DNA of 64,000 nt from Actinostola sp. cb2023 (taxonomy: Eukaryota > Cnidaria > Anthozoa > Actiniaria > Actinostolidae), in NCBI GenBank assembly GCA_033675265.1, contig JAUJYZ010001371.1:156001-220000 (forward strand). Direction: 5' to 3'. Position 1 is the first letter of the stretch, and each line of letters starts with the position of its first letter. Below the pieces are notes generated by a model. That model searched no databases. It saw only the letters and a program-made list of their open reading frames with translations, and was not told the DNA's origin. Made by a program: the position numbers and the translations under genes. Shown piece after piece: positions 4,902 to 10,900 of the stretch.

Positions 4902-7900
4902 TTAATGGTCCAATTCTTTTCCTAATTCTTTGGCAATGGTGTTAAGCTGGATGTTTGTGGTGCCTTCATAAATAGTCCCTGAAAAACAATATCATAGTTT
5001 GATCACTTCATAATTTCTAACCATAAATAATCTTCCCTCCATTGAGTTATACATTTTGGTTAAAGTGCAACTAACCCGTGAGATTGGTTTAAAAATCTAT
5101 TCAATATATGCTGAATAGTTTTTTTTTTTTTTTTTTTTTTTTTTTTAAATTTCAATTGTAGACAATCTAATTACATTGACATATATATACTTATTACACA
5201 CAGTTACATGTCCTTTTCTTATTTTATAATTTTAACATAACACCAACAGAACAAACAAACAATAGCCGCGCTGTAGCTGACAATGCGATACTTTAACAAT
5301 TTAATATGTACATAGTTGTAGTATTGTGTAATTAACGCTTGAAACTAAGACGTTAATTAAGAAATTAAGGATCTGCCTGAGATCATTCAGCTCAGGGAAA
5401 CCATTAATTTTTCCCATTTTCTTAAATGTGAAGTGACCTTTTTATTTTTTAATGCGATCATCCATTCAATATGCTGAATAGTTGGTGGGTTCAGTATTTT
5501 GTGATTTGAACCTTGAGTTTATGAGTTATAGAGGTTTGAAATCTCAATATGTAAATTTGATGACGTCTACTAAGGAATCATTTATTATACAAAAACGTCC
5601 TTGTGCTGATTATTGACATTTGAAAACTTACAGAATATTTTCAGTCTTTATGAATGATTTTATAACTTTTTCCCCATTTCAAAAAATAAGTTATTAATAA
5701 GTTATGGCAAATTCCTTAGTTAAAGACGTCATCAAATTTGCATATTGAGATTTCAAACCTCTATAACTCATAAACGCAAGGTTCAAATCACAAAATACTG
5801 AACCCACAAACTATTCAGCTTATTAACTTGAAAATCTTGTAGTTGCAACTTATATTGAATAGATTTTTTAAACAATCTCACAGGGGTTAGTTGCACTTTA
5901 ATATATAATACGTAAATACCAAACACTCAAAAGAGATATCTCTCTGGTTTCAAAACACGGAGGAGTGAATTGAAATCGTAGCAAGAACTCTTGAGTGTGT
6001 CATTTTCAAACCATTAATAATTCTTGGAGAAATTCAAAGTGAAAGTTGACCAAATTCTATGCTAATTAAGATCACATTTTAAAACCTCCTTCACGGTGGG
6101 GATTTCCTAATTGTTATGTCCTCATGAATTATTAATGAGTTTGAGAAACATGGATGTTGAGGAAACTCTGCTTCAAATTGATTGGTCAATCATTTCAAAA
6201 TCATGTTAAAGATGATAATGATTATGGATTTATAACTCTGATTCTCACCAATTTTACAGTCTCTGTAGTATTTCTCAATGGGAAAGGACTTTATAAATCC
6301 TACTCCTCCCATCCACTCTATGCATTTTGATGTTGTTAATGTTGCAACCTGTAAATAAACAAATAGTTCAATTTAGGGTGTTATACTGCTGCTGTATGAC
6401 TATGAAAAACATTTCTTCTCACTCATCCGTTAGATATATTTATACTTAGAAATTCTTAGATATTTTGAATTGTAATTAGCTCCTAGATACATGTACATCT
6501 TTGGAATGAGCATCCCAGCTCAATGATGTCTTAAATAAAGTTATACTTTATTACCTGGCACACGGCACAGTCGCAGCATGATCCATGCCATATGATTTTC
6601 ACAGATATATTAAATTGGCCGGGAGTGAGTAAACACCTCTTATTAACCAAGCGTGAGGTCCGTATGGGAAGATATGGACCAAGTTTTTCGCACGGCCTTA
6701 TGGCCCAAGCGCGTATCACGCGGGCCATAGAAATAGGGAAAAAACGAGGATCCATAACTTCCCGTACGGACCGAGCAAGCGAGGTTATTAAGATATTTAT
6801 TATATAATAGCTTTTCCTTACGTTTCTGTTTTCAGCAGGCCGTACGGGAAGTTACAGCCCACTAATTGACCAATAAGAGCGTGTGTAGTATCTGTGCTAT
6901 ATAATAATAGCTGATAGTTGAGTAGGACTAGCTACACCTACCTCTCCAGCAAAGTACTTGGCCATGGCTGCTTGTTTTACAAATGGTAAACCTGCTTCCT
7001 TTCTGCGTGCTGCATTATACACTAACAACCTGGCAGCCTCAATCTGTGTGTGCACGTGAGATATTTGATGCTGCATCCCCTAAAACACAATTCAAACAAA
7101 TTGATTAAAAGCTATGAAAGTGATAATGAAGCATTCCACTATTTCTCTGATGATGGGTCAATTGACCCGAAAGCTCAGAGTCCATTAAACTTCAAAATCG
7201 TGTAGAAGAATCCATGTTTATTTTCAAATAATGAATCCTACACACAAACAAATTGATTAAAAGCTAGTATTGTTGTTACAATGTCATTGTCTTACTTGGA
7301 AGTCAAATTGATTAAAAGCTATTGTTGTTACAATGTCATTGTCTTACTTGGAAGTCAAATTGATTATTTTTTTTAAAGCTATTGTTGTTACAATGTCATT
7401 GTCTTACTTGGAAGTCAAATTGATTAAAAGCTATTGTTGTTACAATGTCATTGTCTTACTTGGAAGTCAAAGTGATTATTTTTTTAAAAGCTATTGTTGT
7501 CACAATGTCATTGTCTTACTTGGAAGTCAAATTGATTAAAAGCTATTGTTGTTACAATGTCATTGTCTTACTTGGAAGTCAAATTGATTAAAAGCTATTG
7601 TTGTTACAATGTCATTGTCTTACTTGGAAGTCAAATTGATTAAAAGCTATTGTTGTCACAATGTCATTGTCTTACTTGGAAGTCAAATTGATTAAAAGCT
7701 ATTGTTGTTACAATGTCATTGTCTTACTTGGAAGTCAAAGTGATTAAAAGCTATTGTTGTCACAATGTCATTGTCTTACTTGGAAGTCAAAGTGATTAAA
7801 AGCTATTGTTGTCACAATGTCATTGTCTTACTTGGAAGTCAAATTGATTAAAAGCTATTGTTGTTACAATGTCATTGTCTTACTTGGAAGTCAAAGTGAT

Positions 7901-10900
7901 TAAAAGCTATTGTTGTCACAATGTCATTGTCTTACTTGGAAGTCAAATTGATTAAAAGCTATTGTTGTCACAATGTCATTGTCTTACTTGGAAGTCAAAG
8001 TGATTATTTTTTTAAAAGCTATTGTTGTTACAATGTCATTGTCTTACTTGGAAGTCAAATTGATTAAAAGCTATTGTTGTCACAATGTCATTGTCTTACT
8101 TGGAAGTCAAAGTGATTAAAAGCTATTGTTGTTACAATGTCATTGTCTTACTTGGAAGTCAAATTGATTAAAAGCTATTGTTGTCACAATGTCATTGTCT
8201 TACTTGGAAGTCAAAGTGATTATTTTTTTTAAAAGCTATTGTTGTTACAATGTCATTGTCTTACTTGGAAGTCAAATTGATTAAAAGCTATTGTTGTCAC
8301 AATGTCATTGTCTTACTTGGAAGTCAAAGTGATTATTTTTTTAAAAGCTATTGTTGTTACAATGTCATTGTCTTACTTGGAAGTCAAATTGATTAAAAGC
8401 TATTGTTGTCACAATGTCATTGTCTTACTTGGAAGTCAAAGTGATTATTTTTTTAAAAGCTATTGTTGTTACAATGTCATTGTCTTACTTGGAAGTCAAA
8501 TTGATTAAAAGCTATTGTTGTTACAATGTCATTGTCTTACTTGGAAGTCAAATTGATTAAAAGCTATTGTTGTCACAATGTCATTGTCTTACTTGGAAGT
8601 CAAATTGATTAAAAGCTATTGTTGTTACAATGTCATTGTCTTACTTGGAAGTCAAAGTGATTAAAAGCTATTGTTGTTACAATGTCATTGTCTTACTTGG
8701 AAGTCAAATTGATTAAAAGCTATTGTTGTTACAATGTCATTGTCTTACTTGGAAGTCAAAGTGATTAAAAGCTATTGTTGTTACAATGTCATTGTCTTAC
8801 TTGGAAGTCAAAGTGATTATTTTTTTAAAAGCTATTGTTGTTACAATGTCATTGTCTTACTTGGAAGTCCCATATCTTTTGACCAAACTGTTCTCTTTCT
8901 CTCAGATACTGGACAGCTTCATCAAAACAGCCTTGTGCCAGGCCAATCATCTATAGATAAATAATATTATTATTAATAATTATGTATATATTATTTATTA
9001 TTAATAAAGTATTACAGCATGGACACTCGAACAATGAACACTTCATATATAAATTATTGATTGAGCAAATTGATCAGAAAAATGATTTATTTTGATCACT
9101 AAGTGTATTTAAACTCAATGCTGCATTTGAGAGGCTGTGAGGCAATAGAAAGTTCGGAAAAAAAAGTTCGGAAAAAACTTGAGTGTTCACGGTTCGAGTG
9201 TCCACACTGTAATAAAAGTTAGTTAACCCATTCGCTCCTGAGCTATTTTGCGTTTTTTAGCGATTTTCTGGACCTAATCACGTCGTAGGAAATTTCGATT
9301 CCATATAAGGGGTTTCCATGGAAATCTTGACAGTTCTGAAAGCCCACGGGCTCAGGTTCTGACGTAATCTTTCTCTTGTCGTGAATCTCCGCGAGGAACA
9401 GCATCTCGTAGCTACTAGGAGCGGTCAATTTTGCATTTTTAGAGTGTTTATAGCCATTATTCACCACAGAAGCCCCCAGGACAGCATCATTAAGCTTGAC
9501 TGGTGTGGTAGAGACCGTTCTCCTGGAAGAACTCAGGAGTTTAGATACGAATTCACGAACAGATTTCGACTTTGCCGTTTGGAAATTCAAAATGGCGGAC
9601 TCAATTGTGAAATCGTCTCTCTGGTCTTTCTGTGGTGGATTCCAGGACCTACAAAGGCATTTTTGGCGACTTTGGACTTGTAAAGAATGCAACCGGTGCA
9701 ATATTTTGCCTGTAGGACCGAGTGGCTCGACACTCTATATATTCTTAAAAGAGGGATTTTCGGGGGAGATCTATGCCGAAATTCCCGGATGTTTCCCGGC
9801 ATCCTTTTCGGGCGTGCAGAAGGAAAACACGTGTTAGCGAAAGTGGTCCTAAGGAAATGGCTATTGTTCGGCGAGTTAAGGAAAAGAGAGGGCAAAATTC
9901 ACGACTATATCAAGAAGAGAGATGGAAGTTTGCTGAGAAAGTGGCGTTTTGTTTCGTAAGGATGTATTTTGGAAGAAAATCCAAGTCAAATGTCGGTCAT
10001 TTTCGAGGTGTAAAATTGCGTCAAAAACACGCATTTTTGATTTTTATGGCAAACAAATTGAACTAATGCCCAGAAATCGGACCTGTAAGTCAGTTTACTT
10101 GAGGTTAAAATATGAAGAGTTATCTAGTTGTCACTAATAACTGGCCATGAGATCGATGTTACGAAAATTCAGAAAGTTAGAATTTTTCAAAGCACTATCG
10201 ATGTTTACGGCCGGTTTCGGCCGGTGTAGGAGCGAATGGGTTAATGTTCTGTCACATTAAAATGTAATTCCATTGCATTCTTGTCCCATCATTTCATTTC
10301 TATTTCACTTCCTTTAGTTTCCATGTTTTTATATCTATTTACTTCTATTTATATAAACCCATCATCCATTTCAGATCGCCCGTTATCACATAAAAGCAAC
10401 AAATCATAGGGAATCTACAGAGAATTCTGTCTGCATATAAGTCAAACAAGCAATACAGTGTAGAGATTGATAGAGTGAGTCCAGTAAACCTGGGCATTAC
10501 TAATTAGCAGTCAGTGTTTATTAGATGCAAAGGAACACAAGAAAACAAAAGAGTGAGTGTCTAATAGTGTGTATTGGTGTACAGTAGTTAGTAATGCCCA
10601 GGTTTATTGGAATCACTCTACTAATTAGCTGTCAGTGTTTATTAGATGCAAAGGAACACAAGAAAACAAAAGAGTGAGTGTCTAATAGTGTGTATTGGTG
10701 TACAGTAGTTAGTAATGCCCAGGTTTATTGGAATCACTCTACTAATTAGCTGTCAGTGTTTATTAGATGCAAAGGAACAAAAGAAAACAAAAGAGTGAGT
10801 GTCTAATAGTGTGTATTGGTGTACAGTAGTTAGTAATGCCCAGGTTTATTGGAATCACTCTATCAATTAGCTATATATAGGCTTGTACACCTCATTACGA

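What the first reader, a model, noticed from the sequence alone, without database searches (positions are those of the whole stretch)
7268..8866. About 29 spare copies of a splice donor in one intron
The minisatellite unit begins inside ACADSB exon 9: every unit has the last nine exon bases GACTTCCAA followed by the intact donor GTAAGACAAT. The unit therefore copies a working exon/intron junction, leaving a field of strong decoy 5' splice sites just downstream of the real one. Seen directly: identical junction sequence in nearly all units. Inferred: possible effects on splicing, such as U1 titration, donor choice or noisy exon extension. An exon extended to any later donor would include intron sequence.
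Basis: partly seen in the sequence, partly recalled or inferred. Interest (0 to 1): 0.85.

Follow-up and report, generated by a model that had tools for sequence, protein, structure and literature searches.

The report
Splice-donor minisatellite in anemone ACADSB intron
In a deep-sea anemone, a short stretch of DNA spanning the end of one exon and the start of the next intron is repeated thirty times in a row, giving one real and 29 look-alike splice sites; such 'mirage' repeats were already known from amphioxus, so this is a striking new example rather than a new mechanism.

Summary
GACTTCCAAGTAAGACAAT occurs 30 times, exactly, all on the minus strand, from 8869 to 7286 (0.08 expected). Copy 1 is the real exon end and donor of an ACADSB exon; the other 29 lie downstream in the same 1,781-nt intron. 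The window is from the sea anemone Actinostola sp. cb2023: 374 of 379 residues of its gene model QZH41_016757 read exactly from it. Units of 52, 60 or 61 nt carry a donor but no good acceptor and look like an ordinary minisatellite. Joining any of the 29 spare donors to the real acceptor adds three codons and a stop (29 of 29), so donor choice makes no new protein. By a crude score the donor is not 'strong'. Tandem repeats spanning exon-intron boundaries are known in amphioxus as 'mirages', with regular splicing reported. Best reading: a neutral minisatellite seeded across a junction, tolerated because the first donor is still chosen (inferred; no RNA seen). A role in splicing is untested. Its value is as a natural competition assay of 30 donors, identical from -9 to +18.

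The parts
8861..8950 (-). ACADSB exon (MIGLAQGCFDEAVQYLREREQFGQKIWDFQ); its last 9 nt (8869-8861) are the exon part of repeat unit 1
8851..8869 (-). Real junction: GACTTCCAA|GTAAGACAAT, phase 0, first intron base 8860
   Evidence: of the 8 animal proteins aligned (P0121 and 6 others) have DFQ followed at once by the next exon's residues; the Nematostella model P0129 differs
7249..8869 (-). Minisatellite array, 30 copies; of the first 29 units 22 are 52 nt, 6 are 60 nt and 1 is 61 nt; the 30th runs into unique intron
7295..8800 (-). Span of the first intron bases of the 29 spare donors; all lead to WDFQVRQ-stop if joined to the real acceptor
7245..7266 (-). First copy of 22-nt direct repeat TAGCTTTTAATCAATTTGTTTG (end of unit 30 and beyond)
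7115..7244 (-). 130-nt stretch between the two 22-nt repeats, possible old insertion; no second copy in the window; carries an acceptor-like AG ending at 7238
7093..7114 (-). Second copy of the 22-nt direct repeat, just before the real acceptor
6942..7079 (-). Next ACADSB exon (GMQHQISHVHTQ...); intron AG ends at 7080

Best explanation
This is a minisatellite whose founding duplication happened to span an exon-intron junction, of the kind called a 'mirage' in amphioxus. A 52-nt segment (last 9 exon bases plus 43 intron bases) was duplicated next to itself and then expanded and reshuffled by slippage or unequal exchange to 30 copies. The first copy remains the coding exon end. The other 29 donors lie in the intron and are normally removed with it, because the exon-proximal donor is the one defined together with the upstream acceptor and exon; occasional use of a later donor gives one kind of nonsense product that would be degraded. 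Shown: the array, its anatomy, donors without good acceptors, the common stop. Inferred: normal splicing, neutrality, decay of mis-spliced RNA and the route of expansion.
For: 30 exact junctions. Only 8 distinct sequences among the first 29 units, with variants interspersed; units at even distances are more alike than at odd ones (p 0.0002 in 5,000 shuffles; a contrast chosen after seeing the pattern), as exchange in two-unit blocks would give. No variable position among the first 27 nt in all 30 units, but elsewhere variation sits at only four places (columns 28, 43, 46-54, 58 of the first 29 units), so junction identity needs no selection. None of the AGs in the array is among the eight best of 106 acceptor candidates, and AGGT is absent from the array. 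All 29 spare donors give WDFQVRQ-stop. Precedents reported not to disturb splicing: amphioxus Adh3 and globin genes and the discussion in the PGBD5 paper. If the intron was once about 64 nt (216 nt after the last donor, minus 152 nt of one repeat plus the 130-nt stretch; arithmetic), 44% of random 52-nt seeds touching it would span the donor.
Against: No RNA was seen, so regular splicing is assumed from other animals. The ancestral 64-nt intron is inferred from this one intron; with 216 nt the donor-spanning chance falls to 19% and with this genome's mean intron (1,442 nt) to 3%. The block pattern is not clear-cut: the best single lag, 2, has p 0.0066 alone but 0.107 after allowing for the 12 lags looked at. 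Copy number rests on one DBG2OLC assembly. A second acceptor-like AG at 7238 scores above the real one; from the real donor it would give a short tail and stop. Other such arrays in this genome could not be looked for.
Confidence: 0.8

Rival explanations
1. The spare donors act: they compete with the real donor (or hold U1 snRNP), so that a copy-number-dependent share of ACADSB transcripts carries the early stop and is degraded, tuning expression.
For: 30 donors identical from -9 to +18; every spare donor gives the same stop as the fourth codon after DFQ (29 of 29); nothing in those 27 nt tells the real donor from the spares.
Against: Identity is explained by an array that hardly varies anywhere; the donor is the weakest of 8 by computed U1 pairing (crude), though level with the best by consensus matches; amphioxus mirages are reported not to disturb splicing. 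No direct data either way.
Confidence: 0.1
2. Assembly artefact: a single or few copies inflated by mis-assembly.
For: Draft assembled from long reads with DBG2OLC and polished; exact copy number in such arrays is often wrong (general knowledge).
Against: The array (1.6 kb) is far shorter than the stated 20-kb library inserts; 8 unit types, including 60-nt ones, are interspersed, not a stutter of one unit.
Confidence: 0.05
3. An intron-gain or introner-like element: units that bring their own splice sites and could become new introns or exons.
For: Each unit carries a donor; mirage repeats are proposed as a route to new introns.
Against: No array AG among the eight best acceptor candidates and no AGGT in the array, so a unit is unlikely to be excised or kept as an exon on its own; the unit begins with this very exon's end.
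Confidence: 0.03

Closest known systems
'Mirage' minisatellites of amphioxus (Adh3; globins BflGb6, BflGb9): passages of PMC3087553 seen; original Adh3 paper (PMC117041) not held
   Different: A cnidarian; 30 copies against 6 and 3 in the two BflGb6 haplotypes (Adh3 copy numbers not seen); junction identical in every copy; splicing and length instability not tested here
Amphioxus PGBD5 tandem repeats at splice sites (passages of PMC3902484 seen)
   Same: 60- and 108-bp tandem repeats coinciding with or overlapping 5' and 3' splice sites; the authors liken them to mirages
   Different: 2 or 7 and 3 or 6 imperfect copies there, by assembly; 30 near-perfect copies here
Intron gain by tandem duplication (e.g. 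potato RdRp gene, PMC4974935; search listing and start of abstract only)
   Same: Tandem duplication in a gene, tied to splicing
   Different: Here no acceptor is supplied by the unit, so no new intron is expected
C. elegans intronic minisatellites linked to alternative splicing (PMC4039745; search listing and start of abstract only)
   Same: Intronic minisatellites discussed together with splicing
   Different: What I saw does not say that they copy the junction itself

Membership tests
Mirage minisatellite | Tandem repeat whose unit spans an exon-intron boundary | tested here: met
   Unit = last 9 exon nt + intron; 30 of 30 junctions exact; exon supported by PDB match and gene model
Mirage minisatellite | Units carry splice signals | tested here: met
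   GTAAG donor in 30 of 30
Mirage minisatellite | Regular splicing continues | not testable with these tools
   The frame stays open and the conserved protein joint forms with donor 8860 and acceptor 7080, with none of the 29 spare donors; no RNA seen
Mirage minisatellite | Length instability between haplotypes or in soma | not testable with these tools
   Single assembly; variant pattern inside the array is indirect
Introner-type element (definition recalled) | Carries both donor and acceptor | tested here: not met
   No array AG among the eight best of 106 candidates, by a matrix from only 8 acceptors
Introner-type element (definition recalled) | Dispersed copies in many genes | not tested
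   The genome search unanswered 12 times; no other site in the window
Recursive splice site (definition recalled) | AG directly followed by GT | tested here: not met
   0 AGGT in the array on the minus strand

The most novel reading that the evidence does not exclude
The array is a copy-number dial on ACADSB: 29 competing donors, all leading to one kind of nonsense mRNA, set the share of productive transcripts, and the share changes as the minisatellite grows or shrinks, between animals or in somatic tissue.
Probability: 0.08. Interest if true: 0.75.

Novelty: new member of a known kind. Interest (0 to 1): 0.38.

Why it matters
It adds a cnidarian case to junction-copying minisatellites, which in the papers I saw were all from amphioxus. 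It also offers a natural version of a basic test in splicing: 30 donors with the same 27 nt from -9 to +18, differing in position and in what lies upstream. Which one is used, and how often, can be read from cDNA as a ladder of mostly 52- and 60-nt steps. Because the last three codons of the exon belong to the array, exchange with intronic copies could in principle rewrite coding sequence (inference).

Tried and rejected
Other arrays of the ACADSB gene: between 4902 and 14915 TRF lists further arrays (17-mer at 13218-14428, AAT at 11924-12699, 121-mer at 10498-10872, and small ones); comparing those coordinates with the nine exons, only 7249-8869 overlaps an exon, so nothing here shows that mirages are common in this genome. 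Selection on the junction: not needed, since the rest of the unit hardly varies. Recursive splicing and internal exons: rejected on the sequence. The 130-nt stretch has no second copy in the window; whether it is a mobile element stays open. Rfam and tRNA scans of the window gave nothing. The search on competing donors gave 8 papers, none on the point in its listing and none used. I claim nothing about absence in print beyond the searches; the earthworm paper PMC12783039, of which I saw passages, has minisatellites in metallothionein introns but no junction copying in those passages.

Weak tools: the acceptor matrix rests on 8 acceptors of this gene, the tested one left out; the U1 energy is the best free duplex, not forced into register. 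RNA folds of the unit and of two 100-nt contexts (-1.7, -8.2, -7.3 kcal/mol) had no shuffle control and were not used. Whole-window counts of donor-like sites (31 plus, 180 minus) include this array and were not used.

Full report
What was checked. The minus strand from 8869 to 7286 holds 30 exact copies of GACTTCCAAGTAAGACAAT, and there is no other match in the window at up to 3 mismatches on either strand (chance mean 0.08). TRF calls one array, 7249-8869, 30.0 copies of a 52-nt unit. Of the first 29 units 22 measure 52 nt, 6 measure 60 and 1 measures 61; the 30th merges into unique intron.

Which gene, which animal. The exon 8950-8861 and the exon 7079-6942 joined give a peptide matching PDB 2jif, a short/branched-chain acyl-CoA dehydrogenase, over all its 76 residues, E 6.2e-31. 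Nine coding exons could be read. A protein search with their product returned as best hit hypothetical protein QZH41_016757 of Actinostola sp. cb2023, a sea anemone of family Actinostolidae. 374 of its 379 residues read exactly from the window's minus strand (its first five were not placed by that script), including an unspliced tail after one exon, so I take the window to come from that assembly. The gene model joins DFQ to GMQH, i.e. 8861 to 7079, straight across the array. The genome paper PMC10803348, of which I read part 1 of 2 of the text, names PacBio plus Illumina reads, DBG2OLC assembly, a mean intron of 1,442 nt, and gene prediction from homology integrated by MAKER; the part I read mentions no RNA data. 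So the gene model is not transcript evidence.

Anatomy. The intron is 1,781 nt, and 1,565 nt of it separate the first from the last donor. Each 52-nt unit is the last nine exon bases (codons D, F, Q) plus 43 intron bases. The last donor lies 216 nt before the exon; within that tail a 22-nt direct repeat (7266-7245 and 7114-7093) flanks 130 nt. Taking away one repeat and the 130 nt leaves a 64-nt intron, which I infer, without comparative proof, to be the older form. In an intron of that size 44% of random 52-nt seeds that touch it would span the donor; for 216 nt it is 19%, for the genome's mean intron 3%.

Are the copies working decoys? Donor: CAA|GTAAGA matches the consensus at 7 of 9 positions, as do 3 others of the 8 real donors examined, none exceeding it; its computed U1 duplex is the weakest of the 8. 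The intron has 30 sites matching at 7 or more positions, the real one included: 16.8 per kb, against 0, 0.5 and 3.4 per kb in the three other introns of the gene examined. Acceptor: of 106 AGs between 8950 and 7080 scored with a small matrix, the two best are at 7238 and 7080 (the real one), both outside the array, and no array AG is among the top eight. So the array is donor-only. The site at 7238 scores a little above the real acceptor; joined to the real donor it would add a 20-residue tail and a stop, and I cannot say whether it is used. Consequence of the spare donors: for each of the 29, joining to the real acceptor adds V-R-Q and a stop (29 of 29), and reading on into the intron meets the same stop. 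No new protein comes from donor choice alone.

Is the junction under selection as a set? All 30 units share their first 27 nt. But the remaining columns of the 29 aligned units vary at only a few places (28, 43, the 46-54 insertion, 58). There are 8 distinct units in 29, mean pairwise difference 1.13. The perfect junctions are therefore what a young or homogenised array would show anyway. For exchange in two-unit blocks the evidence is fair, not clean: units two apart are more alike than in shuffled order (p 0.0066 for that lag alone), but allowing for the 12 lags looked at p is 0.107, while the contrast of even with odd lags, chosen after seeing the pattern, has p 0.0002.

Precedent. [quoted passage not shown] length differences between haplotypes and somatic instability at Adh3 are reported. 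Passages of PMC3902484 report repeats over splice sites in amphioxus PGBD5 and cite troponin C. The original Adh3 paper is not held. The present array meets the structural definition; splicing and instability could not be tested.

How it most likely works. A slippage or exchange event duplicated a segment across the junction; once there were two copies, unequal exchange made thirty (inferred). The animal tolerates it because the first donor, paired with its own exon and upstream acceptor, is still chosen (inferred), and because mistakes in donor choice end in one kind of nonsense transcript (computed). I put this at 0.8. That the array tunes ACADSB output is possible (0.1) and easy to test. 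In the alignment of 8 animal proteins 7 have DFQ followed without insertion by the next exon's residues; the exception is a Nematostella gene model with two extra residues there, which may be a prediction error.

Verdict. Real, striking, of a known kind: a new member of the mirage class, outside amphioxus, with more copies than the numbers I saw in print (6 and 3 in BflGb6; 2 to 7 in PGBD5; Adh3 numbers not seen).

Noticed in passing
34061-39496 (minus) and 54834-56659 (plus): Two large arrays of the same 101-nt unit in opposite orientation, with partly shared flanking sequence: looks like a dispersed element with an internal satellite. By eye, the unit holds a pyrimidine-rich stretch ending in CAG, then 39 nt without a stop in one frame, then GTAAG, so it resembles a mini-exon with both splice sites.
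   Followed up: partly
7238: An acceptor-like AG just downstream of the array scores slightly above the real acceptor at 7080; from the real donor it would lead to a stop.
   Followed up: partly
20483-23578 and 30708-33629 (plus): Two long open frames with leucine-rich repeats; the two best listed relatives of the first are 61% and 58% identical proteins without a name, followed by weaker ones including Paramuricea and Dendronephthya.
   Followed up: partly
6345-6193 (minus): The public gene model QZH41_016757 runs through the donor after KIG into intron and lacks the last exon that I read at 4978-4902: a likely annotation error.
   Followed up: yes
whole window: Very many tandem arrays: 60 TRF rows (overlapping rows counted), among them 17-, 25-, 52-, 55-, 70- and 101-nt units.
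   Followed up: no
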